Part shown: piece after piece, positions 57,865 through 64,000 of the stretch
How positions within the stretch are numbered: the stretch's first letter is position 1
How the letters are laid out: the number at the start of each line of letters is the position of its first letter
From: Trinickia terrae
GTDB lineage: Bacteria; Pseudomonadota; Gammaproteobacteria; Burkholderiales; Burkholderiaceae
Length of the DNA: 64,000 nucleotides
Assembly: GCF_005144415.1 (NCBI RefSeq)
Contig: NZ_SWJE01000002.1
Location: forward strand, 199,723 to 263,722
Direction of reading: 5' to 3'
Position numbers and translations under genes: made by a program
The notes under the pieces: model-generated
What the model saw: the letters and a program-made list of their open reading frames with translations, nothing else
What the model was told of the DNA's origin: nothing
Database searches by the model: none

Positions 57865-58002
57865 CGGTAGTTAGCCATAGCCGCGCCAGAGAAGACGGCG
57901 GCGCCACCAGCAAGGACTTCCGGAGTGGATACACTTTTCACGCCAGCAGCCACATCACCCCTCTCCCCAACCCACCAAAAACCCTGTAGAATTGCGTGCT
58001 CT

Positions 58003-58043
58003 GCGGGCGTCGTATAATGGCCATTACCCTAGCTTCCCAAGCT
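58003..58043 (+). tRNA. 5' half of tRNA-Gly(CCC), interrupted
   Basis: GCGGGCGTCGTATAATGGCC and the following bases give acceptor strand, D-arm and anticodon arm with TTCCCAA loop (anticodon CCC). After AAGCT the variable loop, T-arm and 3' acceptor strand are not found; unrelated sequence follows. A TAGAAT -10 at 57987 fits a tRNA promoter. The break just past the anticodon stem is where some integrases recombine. The 3' half is not in this window. Confidence 0.8.
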
Positions 58044-58472: not shown

Positions 58473-58883
58473 TCACAGCGCTTCGGGATCCGGTTCGACA
58501 AACTCCGGTAGTTCGCTCAGTTCATCAATTGTGGGTTGTACTTCATCGCACAAGCTGCGGGCAGCAGCAATGTCCTGTTTGCTCGGCGCACCATGCAGCG
58601 GACTGAGCAATCGTTGAGCTTGGTCCAGATGACCCTTGGCCCTGATCATGCGCGCAACTTCCTCGCCAAAGGGCAACGGGCCTTCACGCTGGCCGGTGTT
58701 CTCGCACCAGCGAAGATAGTCGTCGTTGGCCTGTGAGCCTGCGGCAATGTACTCGACCGTATGGTCCAACGCCGCATCGATGTCGACTGTCAGTTCCCCT
58801 AGCTCGTCATGTTCTTCCGGGACCACATTTGTCATATCATCACCCCATTCCGTCGTTTGGCCGTCAATTATGCAGTCATCCAT
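58473..58883 (-). CDS. Acidic protein of unknown function
   Basis: This is a 136-residue protein, strongly acidic (EEHDELGELTVDIDAALDHT, ELSELPEFVEPDPEAL), mostly helical, with no recognised domain. The start may be ATG 58883 or 58835; a GTG at 58946 is also open. It diverges from the R-M-S gene with ~435 bases between. Small acidic proteins beside restriction genes can be inhibitors or DNA mimics, but that is only a possibility here. Confidence 0.6.
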   Translation of the reverse strand: MDDCIIDGQTTEWGDDMTNVVPEEHDELGELTVDIDAALDHTVEYIAAGSQANDDYLRWCENTGQREGPLPFGEEVARMIRAKGHLDQAQRLLSPLHGAPSKQDIAAARSLCDEVQPTIDELSELPEFVEPDPEAL

Positions 58884-59318
58884 CACTACTTCAAGGCTCG
58901 AGCTAACCTTTTGATAAAAAAGTTTTTTACCCACAATCTTATCCACAGAAAGTGTGGATAACTCGCCTTTTGGCGAGCATATTTCGTAGGTTCATCTAGC
59001 TCGCCAGACGTTCCGCTGCCTTGACCATCTCATAGAGCGCGCCTGACTAAAGCTTCGATGGACGCACGTTGTCGAGGGGATTCCGCGGGACCGTATAGAC
59101 AACCACCGTCGTGCGAGAGTGACAGCAAAGCAGGCTCTCACGCCGACGCAGCAGTCGCGGTCATAGGCAAGCCGCCCGCATCCGGCGAGATGGCTTGGCC
59201 AAGATGCTCCCGATCTGCGGCACAACCTCCGGGATCCCCAAAAAACCTCCAACTCAGGCTTGCATACCCCCGAGCCGCATGCAAAAATTCGCCTTACACC
59301 ATAGTGTAACGAGAATTC
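58884..59318. other. Spacer upstream of the R-M-S gene
   Basis: No gene is supported. AT-rich near 58910-58960. A palindrome lies at 59294-59309 immediately before the R-M-S start. Confidence 0.45.
59294..59309. promoter_or_regulatory. Palindrome at the R-M-S gene start
   Basis: TTACAC-CATA-GTGTAA, perfect 6-base arms, ends 9 bases before the ATG. It is a likely repressor or control-protein operator. Confidence 0.5.
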
Positions 59319-61874
59319 ATGACGTCCAATCCCCAGCTCTTCTGTCCCATTCGTGGCGCTCTTAAAGCCAAACTCAAAGCTAAAGATGGCCTGACCTTCA
59401 CTGAAGAAAAGCGCCGCATCGAATGCATCAACTTCTTGCTCTCCAAGGGATATCTCGCGGATCGTATCGAGGCCGAAACGGTAGTTATTAAGTTTGGCCA
59501 CAAGGGGAAGAACTCCTTGCGCGCCGACGTGGTGGTCTATGACCGGCCCGTAACTACCGTCAAAACATTTGCCGACGAAAAGCGACGGGAGTTCATGAAG
59601 ATCATCGGGGAAATCAAGCGTAGTACCGCGGATGCGGAGTCTGCAAAGGAAAACCAGCTCAAGCCGGCGCTGGATCTAATTCCATCTATCGACAGTATCG
59701 GAATCTACTGGGACGACACGGAACAGTCCATCTTCTTCAAGCGTGTTAAGGGCTCGTCTATTGAAACGAAGGAAGCTTCGATTGCAACCCTACCGACCTT
59801 CGGGTCCGCATTCGGGTCCAAGGACATCTTCTACAATGACCTCAAGCCCGCCACGGATTTGGTGAAACGGTTTGCGCGGTTGGATGACGTCCTCCATCAA
59901 GCAGGGCACGCGAAAGACGACCGCTACGTAATTCTTTTCAAAGTTCTGCTGCTCAAGATCTTCGATGAGCAAAGTGCACGACCGAAAAACGGTCGAATGA
60001 TAATTCAGGACTTCACTGTCAACGAGGATATCTCGGCAAAGGATGTTGAGAAGGTCTTCAATTCAGGGCTGAAACACGCCCTTACCATCTACGGCTCGCT
60101 GCTCCCGAAAAAACCCACAGAAACTATGGGGTGCTCTGGAGCTACCTTGCGAGAGATATCCAAGATCCTCTGCCCTATGGATATCCTTGGCTCATCGCCG
60201 CAAGTGATCCAAGATTTCTTCATGTACTTCGGGCGCTTCCTGTACAAGGTTGACTTAGGTCAATACTTCACGCCATACGAAGTTATCGATCTCATCGTGC
60301 GAATCGTCAATCCGAAATTTGGCGATGTCGTTCGAGATCCTGCGTGCGGAACTGCTGACTTCTTGGTGGGAGCTAAGCGCATTGCGGCGGAGCGTCACGC
60401 CGCAGACATATCGTCTCAGCTTTGGGGTGTTGACACGGCAGAGCTGGCGGTCAACTTGTCGGTGTTCAATATGATTCTGAACGGCGACGGTCGTTCCAAT
60501 ATTACGATTGGCGATAGCCTGAAGGATATAGAACTACACGAAGGCCGGTACACCACTGCCCTGTGTAATCCGCCGTTTGGATCAAGGATCGTTGAAAAAC
60601 GCAAGGACGTGCTAGCCAAGTTCGAGCTAGGCTCCACTGAGATCGATGGCAAACGCGTCCCGCTCAAATCACAGGAAACAGGAATATTGTTCGTTGAGGT
60701 TTGCCTCAAATCGGTCTGTGCTGGCGGCAGGGTCGGCATTATTTTACCAAACGGGTATCTCGGCAATCGGAGCCCCCGATATACAGAGTTCCGTCGCTGG
60801 CTACTCAAGCAAGCAAGAATAGCCACAATCATCGGTTTCCCCCGGTTCACGTTTAAGAAATCTGGCGCTGACGTTTCCGCATCTGTCGTGGTTCTCGAAA
60901 AGCGGGACGAACCACTTGACGATTTGGCCAAGATGGCCGACTTTCCAATTCACTTCAATCTTGTAGAAAAGGTCGGCTGGGACCTTCAGAGCAATCGGTC
61001 AGGACGGGTCTACAAGCAGGATCCGAACGATGGGGCAATCGTCCTAAACGAAAGCAACGAACCCGTGCTCGACGCAGATTTTGATCGCGTACTCAGCGAT
61101 CTTTATTCGTCCATGGTCGTTGACGCTTTCCCATGGCTTAGCGACGGAGTTCCCTCGGCGGTGTCTTCTGATGGCTGGGTCGTGCAAGCGGAGGAAATTG
61201 TTGCCCGGGAAGATGTATCCCTTGATCCCAAGCGATGGTGTCCAAAGCACGCCTCAGTTACTGAAGCTGTCCGCGCCGTACCTCATATCACTATTGGCGA
61301 CGTAATTCGACCCGTCACACGCCGGCTGAAAAAACATCCGGAACATGCGTATCGCTACGTGGAGATTGAGAAGATCTACGAGAACTTTGGGGCATACATT
61401 GCCGACCAGTATTTCGGTTGGGCACTGCCAGATCGCGGCAAGCAACAGGCTGCGCCTGGCGACATCTTTATCGCGAACATATGGTCAAGCGCCGGGAAGT
61501 GGATGATCGCCGGCGATGAGGCGGCTGATGGGCATCTTGTCGTCACTACCGGGTGCAACCATTTCGAGGTTATCCCCGGACAAGAAGCGTTGCTCGCTGA
61601 TTTAGTGTTCGGCTTATGCTCGGAAGCGTTCAAAGTACAGATGCGCGCATTGGCAACCGGCTCTGACGGACTGTCGTCTACCACGGCGGAGGACATCTGC
61701 TCGATCGTGTTGCCGAAAATCGCATCGGCAGACGTTCGAAAGGCAATCGAGGAACAAATCGAGAAAGCCAAGTCAGGTCATCTGGTGCTACCTCGCATAG
61801 TTCGTGAGGAGCTAACCGCAATTGCACCTGAAGTCAATATTCCACTTAGGTCGTCACACGTGATCCAAGTTTGA
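59319..61874 (+). CDS. Single-chain restriction-modification protein: nuclease, N6-adenine methylase and target-recognition domains
   Basis: This is an 851-residue protein. Residues ~25-145 resemble the HsdR N-terminal PD-(D/E)xK nuclease: Asp70 in LRADVVVYDRP and Glu98-Lys100 in FMKIIGEIKRSTA. Residues ~170-560 are an HsdM-type N6-adenine methylase: QYFTPYEVIDLIVRIV, motif I VVRDPACGTADFLVGA (340-349), motif IV LCNPPFGS (417-420). Residues ~640-851 resemble an HsdS target-recognition domain (APGDIFIANIWSSAGKWMIA, SDGLSSTTAEDICSIVLPKI). No helicase is present. The layout suits a type IIG-like enzyme, or a methylase partner of an unseen system. GC is lower than the core. Confidence 0.85.
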   Translation: MTSNPQLFCPIRGALKAKLKAKDGLTFTEEKRRIECINFLLSKGYLADRIEAETVVIKFGHKGKNSLRADVVVYDRPVTTVKTFADEKRREFMKIIGEIKRSTADAESAKENQLKPALDLIPSIDSIGIYWDDTEQSIFFKRVKGSSIETKEASIATLPTFGSAFGSKDIFYNDLKPATDLVKRFARLDDVLHQAGHAKDDRYVILFKVLLLKIFDEQSARPKNGRMIIQDFTVNEDISAKDVEKVFNSGLKHALTIYGSLLPKKPTETMGCSGATLREISKILCPMDILGSSPQVIQDFFMYFGRFLYKVDLGQYFTPYEVIDLIVRIVNPKFGDVVRDPACGTADFLVGAKRIAAERHAADISSQLWGVDTAELAVNLSVFNMILNGDGRSNITIGDSLKDIELHEGRYTTALCNPPFGSRIVEKRKDVLAKFELGSTEIDGKRVPLKSQETGILFVEVCLKSVCAGGRVGIILPNGYLGNRSPRYTEFRRWLLKQARIATIIGFPRFTFKKSGADVSASVVVLEKRDEPLDDLAKMADFPIHFNLVEKVGWDLQSNRSGRVYKQDPNDGAIVLNESNEPVLDADFDRVLSDLYSSMVVDAFPWLSDGVPSAVSSDGWVVQAEEIVAREDVSLDPKRWCPKHASVTEAVRAVPHITIGDVIRPVTRRLKKHPEHAYRYVEIEKIYENFGAYIADQYFGWALPDRGKQQAAPGDIFIANIWSSAGKWMIAGDEAADGHLVVTTGCNHFEVIPGQEALLADLVFGLCSEAFKVQMRALATGSDGLSSTTAEDICSIVLPKIASADVRKAIEEQIEKAKSGHLVLPRIVREELTAIAPEVNIPLRSSHVIQV

Positions 61875-61925
61875 CCTCTGCGCATGGCGCCGTATCAAAC
61901 ACGATAAAGCCGACCTAGCTATTGA

Positions 61926-61951
61926 CGGGAGGTTCCTGAAGGAACCTCCCG
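61926..61951. terminator. Strong hairpin behind the R-M-S gene
   Basis: CGGGAGGTTCC and GGAACCTCCCG pair perfectly around TGAA. No T tract follows; it lies between convergent genes and may act as a terminator or RNA-stabilising stem. Confidence 0.55.
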
Positions 61952-61978
61952 CCCGGCATCGACAATATACGACCGCTG

Positions 61979-62293
61979 TCACTTCTTTCCCATCGGTTCC
62001 TGCTTGTCCTTGATCATTTGATAGTACGTGCTCGCGCCCGCCTTCGTCAGTTTCACCTCGGTAATGAACTTCTCAATGATGTCTTTCCGCGTCACGTCCT
62101 TGACAGTCCGCATCCGCTTGTAAATCTCCGTCGCCAGTTCCATCTTCGTCGGCGTAGCTGGTTCAGCCTTCGCTGCGGTATCGTTCGTCGTCACGCTCGT
62201 GGCCGGCGCGACAGCACCTGCCTTCGGGTCAACAGCAACCGACTTGCCCGCTTTCTCGTCCTTGCTCGCCACACCTTGCTTCTGATCGACCAT
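61979..62293 (-). CDS. Small Lys/Ala-rich protein with a C-terminal helical domain
   Basis: This is a 104-residue protein. The N-terminal half is low-complexity (VASKDEKAGKSVAVDPKAGA). The C-terminal 50 residues form a compact helical motif (KMELATEIYKRMRTVKDVTR, KDIIEKFITEVKLTKAGAST, YYQMIKDK) that looks like a DNA-binding three-helix unit; similar ends occur in small element-borne proteins, but I cannot name the family. GGAGTG precedes the ATG. It is convergent with the R-M-S gene. Confidence 0.68.
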   Translation of the reverse strand: MVDQKQGVASKDEKAGKSVAVDPKAGAVAPATSVTTNDTAAKAEPATPTKMELATEIYKRMRTVKDVTRKDIIEKFITEVKLTKAGASTYYQMIKDKQEPMGKK

Positions 62294-62970: not shown

Positions 62971-64000
62971 ATGATCGATATGCCAACGAACACGACTCTC
63001 CATGCTGCCGAGCAAGCAGCCCACCCCAGCCAACTCTCGGGCTCGGACCGCAATCCCTCTATTTCCAGTACCGATGCCAATGGCGTCGAAGGTCAGCCTC
63101 ACTCGCACAGGCGGCGGCAGCCCATTGGGTTGACGAATGAGCAGGCTCACGCGCCTACCGCGCCCGAACACGCCATGACGTCCGGAGCGATGAAGATCGC
63201 CATCAATCGCCTGGTCAAGAACAAGGCGTGCCCCGGCACGGATGATTTCAAACTTCTCGCGACAGAATTCGAGAACGTCAGCCTCACGCTCAGTGAAATT
63301 GCAGCCGCAATCGCTGACGGCTTTAGCTGGTGCGCCCAGCACATCGATCGTCGGAATGCGGCGAACTTCATCTGCACCGACGTTCTCGGTGTCGATCTGG
63401 ATGAAGGGTGGACCTTTGATTCTCTGCTCGGCCATGAACTCGTGGCAGACCACGGGCTCCTGATCTATGAAACCTACAGTTCCACGCCCGAACGTCCGCG
63501 TCTTCGGGCTATGTTCCGCAGTCCGTCCACGATCACCGATGCCGACGAAATGCGGAAGGTCGTCCGCGGCCTCGTACGCACGTTCGGCGCGGATGAGTCA
63601 TGTGTCGATCCTTGCCGCATGTATTACGGCAACGAAGGGTGCGAGCCGTATCTCATCGACAGGACGTTGACCGCCGAACAGATCGACTACCTCAAGGAAC
63701 TCGGCGCGACCCAAGGGGATGATTACGAGCAGGATGGCGGCAATCGGAACGCGAACAACTTCGTCCGCTCGTCCCTGCACGTCGAAGAAGATCAATTGTT
63801 GCGCACCCGTGACGGGAAACACGTTCCCCTCTCTTTCCTCGCGAGCGGAACCTCCGTGCATTGCCCGCACCACTCCGACCGGAACCCGAGTGCGTTCGTA
63901 ACGATGTCGTCTCAGGGCATCCGGGGTGTCCATTGCAGCAAGTGCCAGCAAACGTTCTGGCCGGAGACCATGCGCCGCAGCGATCTCAAGAGCCACGACT
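62971..64000 (+). CDS. Primase-polymerase-like protein with CHC2-type zinc finger (3' end outside window)
   Basis: The frame is open from ATG 62971 through base 64000 (343 residues so far). A disordered N-terminus of ~65 residues is followed by a region like archaeo-eukaryotic primases of plasmids and integrative elements: DHGLLIYETYSSTPERPRLR, ADEMRKVVRGLVRTFGADES, DPCRMYYGNEG. Next comes a DnaG-like zinc finger: VHCPHHSDRNPSAFV and VHCSKCQQTFW. The rest, perhaps a helicase, is not visible. Such proteins start DNA replication of plasmids, phages or integrative elements. Confidence 0.75.
   Translation, partial: MIDMPTNTTLHAAEQAAHPSQLSGSDRNPSISSTDANGVEGQPHSHRRRQPIGLTNEQAHAPTAPEHAMTSGAMKIAINRLVKNKACPGTDDFKLLATEFENVSLTLSEIAAAIADGFSWCAQHIDRRNAANFICTDVLGVDLDEGWTFDSLLGHELVADHGLLIYETYSSTPERPRLRAMFRSPSTITDADEMRKVVRGLVRTFGADESCVDPCRMYYGNEGCEPYLIDRTLTAEQIDYLKELGATQGDDYEQDGGNRNANNFVRSSLHVEEDQLLRTRDGKHVPLSFLASGTSVHCPHHSDRNPSAFVTMSSQGIRGVHCSKCQQTFWPETMRRSDLKSHD

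What the first reader, a model, noticed from the sequence alone, without database searches (positions are those of the whole stretch)
59294..62293. R-M-S fusion protein in a low-GC element next to a broken tRNA
One 851-residue chain appears to carry an HsdR-like nuclease domain (Asp70, Glu98-x-Lys100), a complete N6-adenine methylase and an HsdS-like recognition domain, but no helicase/translocase. That is an unusual build for an HsdR_N-type nuclease. It has its own operator-like palindrome, a divergent acidic protein and a convergent small helical protein that could be accessory factors. This is the best candidate here for an uncharacterised defence system.
Basis: partly seen in the sequence, partly recalled or inferred. 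Interest (0 to 1): 0.72.

Follow-up and report, generated by a model that had tools for sequence, protein, structure and literature searches.

The report
Single-chain type IIG restriction-modification enzyme
The gene encodes one protein that probably both marks and cuts DNA, a known design of bacterial anti-virus enzyme (type IIG), carried here on an integrated DNA island; the build is ordinary, but its dedicated DNA switch and its steady recognition part are worth a small follow-up.

Summary
In detail: 59319-61874 (+) encodes one 851-aa chain with an N-terminal PD-(D/E)xK domain (D70, E98-x-K100), an N6-adenine methylase (NPPF), one C-terminal recognition domain and no helicase, at the edge of an 18.6-kb island bounded by a 143-bp repeat containing part of a tRNA-Gly gene. 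The build is not unusual: it is the published type IIG/IIC design (TspGWI, TspDTI, BpuSI, HaeIV), a 'motor-less half' of a type I enzyme. The predicted nuclease fold matches BsaXI (Z 10.4) and HsdR (10.1). The two small neighbours are not partners: no homologue was found in 30 relatives' loci. The family is rare and scattered over seven phyla. Two points are less ordinary. A palindrome, TTACA-N6-TGTAA, begins 25 nt before the start codon, recurs before the gene in the three closest relatives (once with one mismatch), and has no other exact copy in those four assemblies. And the recognition domain shows no swap among close relatives (0 of 44 pairs; MmeI control 41 of 51; pairs not independent). 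Most likely an ordinary type IIG enzyme with its own operator. Activity, target and regulator are untested.

The parts
59319..61874 (+). R-M-S single-chain enzyme, 851 aa (P0001)
   Evidence: AlphaFold2 model pLDDT 85.8, pTM 0.81; relatives matching over the whole length
59319..59828 (+). R domain, residues 1-170: PD-(D/E)xK nuclease, D70, E98-x-K100, Q113
   Evidence: model of residues 1-191, pLDDT 84.3; Z 10.4 to BsaXI 8w2p, 10.1 to HsdR 3h1t; HSDR_N_2 in 9 of 26 members at E up to 0.1
59859..60248 (+). helical, HsdM-like linker domain, residues about 181-310
   Evidence: secondary structure; several HsdM structures align from residue 174-182 on
60252..60911 (+). N6-adenine methylase domain, residues 312-531, NPPF at 417-420
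   Evidence: Pfam N6_Mtase E 1.9e-32; NPPF in 26 of 26
61239..61748 (+). S domain, residues about 641-810: one target recognition domain (limits set by me)
   Evidence: Methylase_S in 4 of 26 members at E up to 0.1; BpuSI aligned over 183-851, M.BseCI over 313-841
59294..59309 (.). palindrome TTACACCATAGTGTAA, candidate operator
   Evidence: same motif in L012 (one mismatch), L013, L014 before the gene, flanks unlike; the only TTACA-N6-TGTAA in this genome
57901..58043 (+). left 143-bp repeat of the island; 58003-58043 is the 5' fragment of tRNA-Gly(CCC)
   Evidence: 131/143 identical to the stretch that ends inside the intact tRNA at contig 276346-276420
61926..61951 (.). hairpin between the enzyme gene and the convergent small ORF; terminator-like stem without a T tract
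   Evidence: fold z = -4.4, 0 of 200 shuffles as good; not in the terminator scan's list
58473..58946 (-). divergent acidic ORF, 157 aa; not conserved with the enzyme
   Evidence: no Pfam, NCBIfam or PADLOC hit; no homologue in 30 relatives' loci
61979..62293 (-). convergent small ORF, 104 aa; not conserved with the enzyme
   Evidence: only weak hits: FKBP26_C E 0.034, PtuB E 0.018; no homologue in 30 relatives' loci
62971..64000 (+). start of an island gene (547 aa in the contig) with an origin-binding/helicase-like domain
   Evidence: Pfam Herpes_ori_bp E 3.3e-09 on the whole gene

Best explanation
It is a stand-alone type IIG (type IIC) restriction-modification enzyme. The single TRD recognises a short DNA sequence (inferred). 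The gamma-class methylase domain puts a methyl group on an adenine in it (inferred from fold and motifs). When the site is unmodified, the N-terminal nuclease cuts at a fixed distance, without ATP or translocation, probably by pairing nuclease domains from two bound molecules (inferred from known type IIG enzymes). I found no partner S, R or second methylase gene that goes with it, so its own methylation should protect the host: either on one strand, or on both as a homodimer on a symmetric bipartite site. It travels on mobile DNA, and expression is probably held by a dedicated operator just before the start codon.
For: Domain content and order. The predicted R domain matches BsaXI and HsdR (Z 10.4 and 10.1) and, at a level that could be a common arrangement, DrdV (8.0) and BpuSI (7.8). 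The whole chain aligns to type IIB/IIG enzymes: BsaXI over residues 1-605 (523 aligned), BpuSI over 183-851 (545), DrdV over 25-836 (514). Nuclease and methylase catalytic residues are both conserved: D/E/K together in 25 of 26, NPPF in 26 of 26. No neighbour gene is widely shared: outside pieces of the enzyme itself no neighbour family occurs in more than 3 of the 31 loci compared (30 relatives plus the window; E 1e-6, within 4 kb of the gene in the relatives). None of 12 following same-strand ORFs that I scanned is S-like. The domain order equals that published for TspGWI, TspDTI and the type IIG class. Island with integrase, a TIR/ThsB-like gene and a HamB-like helicase; relative L012 lies next to a Drt2-like reverse transcriptase.
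Against: No biochemical, methylome or phage data. The multi-domain superpositions have large rmsd (7.5 to 23 A), so relative domain placement is unsure. NCBIfam's best name is the MADS methyltransferase MAD2, although far below its cut-off (157.8 against 720 bits), so a non-restricting role is conceivable. One member (L036) has Lys for E98. Three of 28 genome relatives (L025, L027, L038, all metagenome assemblies) have no single open frame over the match and L029 is cut short, as for a dispensable gene or assembly errors. Not all following ORFs were scanned for an S domain, and five loci hold under 1 kb after the gene.
Confidence: 0.85

Rival explanations
1. A modification enzyme whose nuclease-like domain does not restrict by itself (as the methyltransferases of MADS or BREX work within larger systems), used for regulation or to protect the element's DNA.
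For: Best NCBIfam match and second PADLOC match is MAD2; BrxX appears among the structural matches (Z 19.2).
Against: MAD2 score far below cut-off; no widely shared neighbour gene; the nuclease active site is kept in 25 of 26, as expected if it is used.
Confidence: 0.1
2. A three-gene system in which the acidic and the helical small proteins control or assist the enzyme.
For: Close spacing and convergent/divergent layout in the window.
Against: No homologue of either in 30 relatives' loci, in 299 other genomes of the order searched for each or in the plasmid collection.
Confidence: 0.03
3. Type IIB-like: works with a separate S subunit, as BcgI and BsaXI do.
For: More distant relatives (22-30% identical) have a nuclease-methylase chain followed by another gene: 44 of 51 such loci have a following ORF of 300 aa or more directly after it; in two plasmid relatives of this layout that gene is annotated as subunit S.
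Against: This chain has its own S domain. Directly after it in the window comes a convergent small ORF, and none of 12 following ORFs scanned in relatives is S-like; the rest were not scanned.
Confidence: 0.04
4. A selfish or stabilising module of the mobile element rather than an antiviral one: loss of the gene lets residual enzyme kill the cell, and the target need not vary.
For: Lies in an integrated island here and on plasmid pTET3 next to a replication gene, with parA nearby; recognition domain without swaps in close pairs.
Against: Defence-type neighbours in the island and in L012. Compatible with restriction; not exclusive of the main reading.
Confidence: 0.25

Closest known systems
Type IIG/IIC enzymes TspGWI and TspDTI (PMC2700111, PMC3384240; passages seen)
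   Same: Single chain: N-terminal PD-(D/E)xK domain related to HsdR, helical domain, N6A methylase, C-terminal recognition region; no translocase. TspGWI is called a streamlined 'half' of a type I enzyme.
   Different: Sequences were not compared here. Those enzymes are biochemically proven, this one is not.
BpuSI, DrdV, MmeI (type IIG; MmeI subtype IIL is recalled)
   Same: Same domain order; structural matches of BpuSI and DrdV to R domain and whole chain.
   Different: Not shown to be in the MmeI Pfam families: of them only MmeI_Mtase is matched, in 13 of 26 members with best E 6e-05.
BsaXI (type IIB)
   Same: Closest solved fold of the nuclease domain; aligned over residues 1-605.
   Different: BsaXI works as (RM)2S with a separate S subunit (PMC11997821, start of abstract in the listing); here one TRD is fused.
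HaeIV (single chain, one TRD; table and passages of PMC3874165)
   Same: R~M~S single chain listed without an accompanying methylase.
   Different: Homodimer and symmetric target are not shown here.
MADS MAD2 methyltransferase
   Same: Similar methylase region; the PADLOC model aligns over residues 39-592.
   Different: Below the NCBIfam cut-off; no MADS hit seen among the other window and island proteins scanned.

Membership tests
Type IIG/IIC R-M enzyme | N-terminal PD-(D/E)xK cleavage domain of about 200 aa | tested here: met
   HSDR_N_2 in 9 of 26 members
Type IIG/IIC R-M enzyme | gamma-class N6A methylase in the same chain | tested here: met
   Pfam N6_Mtase in 26 of 26; NPPF in 26 of 26; structural matches to type I M subunits and M.TaqI. 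That this makes it 'gamma' is recalled.
Type IIG/IIC R-M enzyme | C-terminal target recognition domain in the same chain | tested here: met
   Methylase_S in 4 of 26; M.BseCI, CamA and BpuSI structures align through the C-terminal region
Type IIG/IIC R-M enzyme | no ATP-dependent translocase | tested here: met
   no helicase hit in Pfam scans of 26 members; R, helical and M domains follow each other directly
Type IIG/IIC R-M enzyme | cuts at a fixed distance from its site and methylates it | not testable with these tools
   needs biochemistry or a methylome
Type IIB with separate S (BcgI, BsaXI) | separate S subunit | tested here: not met
   fused S domain; the window has no S gene next to it; 12 following ORFs in relatives scanned, none S-like, others not scanned
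Type I R-M | separate HsdR with motor, HsdM, HsdS | tested here: not met
   single chain without motor
Type ISP (LlaGI) | helicase between nuclease and methylase | tested here: not met
   LlaGI (nuclease-deletion structure) aligns only from its residue 714 on
MmeI family | MmeI Pfam domains N, helical, Mtase, TRD | tested here: not met
   only MmeI_Mtase appears, weakly, in 13 of 26
MADS | MAD2 over the NCBIfam cut-off | tested here: not met
   157.8 bits against 720
Controller (C-protein) R-M regulation | small HTH regulator gene next to the R-M gene | tested here: inconclusive
   no small neighbour shared by all four loci with the palindrome at E 1e-6 within 4 kb; L013 and L014 share a DUF3489 gene, L012 has an HTH_3 gene; diverged small genes could be missed

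The most novel reading that the evidence does not exclude
A type IIG lineage with a frozen target whose own protein is the regulator: each half of the palindrome (GTGTAA / TTACAC, the downstream GTGTAA being identical before all four genes) is, or overlaps, the enzyme's recognition sequence. The enzyme would then bind and methylate its own promoter and so time its expression when the element enters a new host, without a C protein.
Probability: 0.12. Interest if true: 0.55.

Novelty: new member of a known kind. Interest (0 to 1): 0.3.

Why it matters
As an architecture it adds little: single-chain R-M-S enzymes with an HsdR-like nuclease are known. It does mark out a compact, rare and widely transferred type IIG subfamily (signature CP[IV]RG near the N-terminus); the one annotated relative of this family seen here (pTET3) is called only 'N-6 DNA methylase'. 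If the recognition domain is really fixed within clades and the promoter palindrome is bound by the enzyme itself, the family would be a clean model for how an enzyme with both activities in one chain, which cannot delay its nuclease relative to its methylase by separate genes, enters a naive cell.

Tried and rejected
Unusual build: rejected after PMC3874165 (section 36, part 1, and passages), PMC6158711, PMC3384240 and PMC2700111 (passages).

Accessory small genes: rejected.

MADS, BREX, type ISP, type IIB and MmeI membership: considered; see the membership test (BREX: PglX models far below their cut-offs).

RptR-type repressor (PMC12255303, outline with abstract, and passages): its site is TAGCTA, not this palindrome; no link found.

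A C-protein-like regulator: an HTH_3 gene in L012, about 0.55 kb after the end of the enzyme gene, has a 38% match in the island (contig 271147-271350) and a 36% match in L031, but none at E up to 1 in L013 or L014, so it is not a consistent partner. No further palindrome copy with up to 1 mismatch lies in L094 or L095 (the first 40 kb of contig fetched), L012 or L013; L014 has a second copy 56 bp upstream of the first. In the whole own genome the longer form TTACACCNNNGTGTAA with up to 2 mismatches hits 4 other places, each with 2 mismatches, fewer than its reversed control.

Same target across all phyla: not claimed. At 40-50% R-M identity the MmeI control has the same recognition-domain identity as this family (40.2 against 38.5%), so distant pairs say nothing; only pairs above 60% are informative, and they form a few clusters, not independent points. 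Between the two main clades the S domain has clearly changed (mean 18.6% identity; 98 of the 105 pairs in the 30-40% bin have S/RM under 0.7).

Paper searches: none of the listed titles and abstract starts is about this family; lists were capped, most subscription journals are not held, and REBASE was not searchable.

The first scan of viral contigs with the single sequence found no relative. The R-domain profile found no solved structure at E up to 1. The promoter scan found no sigma-70-type promoter before the gene.
Full report
WHAT IS THERE. The ORF at 59319-61874 (+) encodes 851 residues. Pfam finds N6_Mtase at 312-531; PADLOC finds type I, MAD2 and type II methyltransferases and type IIG enzymes (best 25 of 48 shown). 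Nothing in Pfam names the ends of this one protein. The family does: among 26 aligned members, at E up to 0.1, HSDR_N_2 is matched in 9, Hjc in 5, Methylase_S in 4 and N6_Mtase in all 26.

RELATIVES. A plasmid homologue (pTET3 of Corynebacterium glutamicum, 848 aa, single gene, annotated 'N-6 DNA methylase') is 34% identical over 737 aligned positions. A scan of 84,980 species genomes with a three-sequence alignment gave 181 pattern matches, 136 confirmed relatives and 80 kept loci. By my reading 28 of these 80 (L012-L039) belong to this family and 52 (L040-L091, 22-30% identical) to a wider group. I aligned 24 of the 28 plus one viral contig (L092) and the window protein. Left out: L025, L027 and L038 (no single open frame over the match; all metagenome assemblies), L029 (709 aa, cut short), and the contig-end viral fragment L093. 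The three nearest are 74-76% identical and lie in alphaproteobacteria (Sphingomonas, Tabrizicola, Antarcticimicrobium). Members from Burkholderiaceae (L026) and Alcaligenaceae (L033) are only 38 and 37% identical, although the window's host seems to be in or near Burkholderiaceae (inference; the best plasmid-collection DNA matches of 20 kb of the window are Burkholderia, 76-79% identical over 4-7% of it). The tree mixes seven phyla (Pseudomonadota, Cyanobacteriota, Bacteroidota, Bacillota, Actinomycetota, Acidobacteriota, Campylobacterota), which points to horizontal transfer. It is rare: 1 of 100 relatives at E 1e-30 and, full length, 1 of 398 genomes of the phylum, in both cases the window's own genome. 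Five of the 398 have partial matches that stop before the S domain.

FOLD. The R region alone (29 rows) gives a confident model (pLDDT 84.3) with helix 29-42, strands 50-59, 65-74 (D70) and 93-99 (E98), helix 103-120 (Q113) and strand 127-131: the PD-(D/E)xK order (the order is recalled). Foldseek's two best hits are BsaXI, at E 0.002 and 0.005. The second-look aligner gives BsaXI Z 10.4 (135 aligned, 3.5 A), the HsdR fragment 3h1t Z 10.1 (123 aligned, 3.2 A), DrdV 8.0 and BpuSI 7.8; the last two lie at about the level that the tool calls common. The full model has pLDDT 85.8 and pTM 0.81. Type I M subunits, BsaXI, BpuSI, DrdV, M.BseCI and M.TaqI align, with Z 19 to 26; the multi-domain ones superpose poorly as rigid bodies (7.5 to 23 A). 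So the chain is R, helical linker, M, one S.

WHAT IT WORKS LIKE. [quoted passage not shown] that IIB enzymes are in effect motor-less type I systems and IIG half of one (PMC6158711); that TspGWI has a PD-(D/E)XK domain related to HsdR and lacks the translocase (PMC2700111); and that the N-terminus of TspDTI showed limited similarity only to HSDR_N (PMC3384240).

PARTNERS. In 30 loci (28 genome loci plus L092 and L093; flanks up to 8 kb a side, several shorter) phmmer found no homologue of either small window ORF at E up to 10. At E 1e-6, among neighbour ORFs of 60 aa or more within 4 kb of the relatives' genes and those of the window's last 14 kb, no family is shared by more than three loci, apart from pieces of the enzyme itself. 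Neither small ORF occurs in the plasmid collection or in the 299 other genomes of the order searched for each. Twelve following same-strand ORFs in twelve relatives were scanned with Pfam; none is S-like, several are mobility or housekeeping genes. Others were not scanned, and five loci hold under 1 kb after the gene. The only [NDS]PP[FYW] motif in a long frame of the 20-kb stretch that holds the island is the enzyme's own, so no second N6 methylase is evident there.

ISLAND. A 143-bp stretch ending in the first 41 bp of tRNA-Gly(CCC) lies at window 57901-58043 and again, 131/143 identical, at contig 276244-276386, where the tRNA is whole. Between them are a phage-type integrase (267027-268172), an origin-binding/helicase-like gene, a TIR gene with strong similarity to ThsB (PADLOC E 5.5e-54), a 967-aa DEAD helicase similar to PDC-M23B (1.1e-33) and HamB (3.5e-28) and a 162-aa ORF. 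A second integrase follows the whole tRNA. This supports a mobile island with defence genes; the role of each gene is inferred from similarity alone.

OPERATOR. TTACACCATAGTGTAA ends 9 nt before the start codon. In the three nearest relatives the same motif stands before the gene: GTACACCGTAGTGTAA (L012), TTACAACGGGGTGTAA (L013), TTACATCCCAGTGTAA plus an imperfect second copy (L014). The flanks are unlike; TACA, the C two bases on, and GTGTAA are the invariant block. Of 30 upstream stretches examined (window, 28 family loci and pTET3), 4 have the motif with at most 1 mismatch, all in this clade; L019 and L031 match with 2 mismatches, which is chance level (14% per shuffled stretch; at most 1 mismatch in the four: 0.5%). 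The start codons of relatives were set by me. The exact pattern TTACA-N6-TGTAA occurs once in the window's 7.24-Mb genome and once each in two of the three relatives' assemblies, each time at this gene; the third has its site with one mismatch and no exact copy. One copy is not far from what base composition would give (my rough estimate by hand: about half a site in the own genome), so the force lies in the position, not in the count. The regulator is unknown. Repression of their own transcription by modification enzymes is described for other R-M systems (PMC3874152, passage).

RECOGNITION DOMAIN. Identity of the S domain tracks that of R+M: in group A (18 sequences, 153 pairs) none of 44 pairs above 60% R-M identity has S/RM below 0.7, against 41 of 51 in an MmeI control (17 of 25 fetched loci; the other 8 were under 850 aa). 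One of 109 group A pairs between 40 and 60% is below 0.7, but that range is uninformative, as the control at 40-50% looks alike. In the wider R-M plus separate-S group (44 loci) mean S/RM is 0.64 to 0.75 above 60%, with S as low as 34% at 84%. Domain limits were set by me, pairs are not independent, and the control comes from one order. It suggests that targets are stable within clades; it does not show the target.

VERDICT. A new member of a known kind, probably an active type IIG enzyme. Interest is modest and rests on the operator and the steady recognition domain.

Noticed in passing
contig C12 271840-272592 (L094:14341-15093 +), beyond the window: 250-aa TIR protein with strong similarity to ThsB of Thoeris (PADLOC E 5.5e-54); no ThsA-like gene was looked for specifically.
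   Followed up: partly
contig C12 272615-276072 (L094:15116-18573 -), beyond the window: 967-aa DEAD helicase similar to PDC-M23B and HamB with a 162-aa ORF beside it (weak PD-Lambda-3_A match): a Hachiman-like pair candidate in the same island.
   Followed up: partly
window 57901-58043 and contig C12 276244-276386: The island repeat is 143 bp and includes the tRNA's upstream region and its 5' half, not the 3' end as is usual (recalled); a second integrase (276529 on) sits after the whole tRNA, so two elements may share this tRNA.
   Followed up: partly
L012:6557-7798 +: A Drt2-like reverse transcriptase (PADLOC E 2e-125) lies directly before the enzyme gene in Sphingomonas oligoaromativorans.
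   Followed up: no
L013:7349-7822 -, L014:7262-7792 -: A gene with a DUF3489 match (over the Pfam cut-off in L013 only) lies divergently beside the palindrome in both Paracoccaceae relatives; no homologue in L012 or the window. Possible regulator there.
   Followed up: partly
L036 (Helicobacter sp. 16-1353), enzyme residue matching E98: Lys instead of Glu in the ExK motif: perhaps a nuclease-dead, methylation-only member.
   Followed up: no
L022 and L029: Two Muribaculaceae genomes carry the gene between the same neighbours (by eye a sugar-kinase-like gene and a TonB-type receptor-like gene), in one of them cut short: a lone-gene insertion.
   Followed up: no
window 61926-61951: Perfect 11-bp stem hairpin between the enzyme gene and the convergent ORF (fold z -4.4), without a T tract.
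   Followed up: partly
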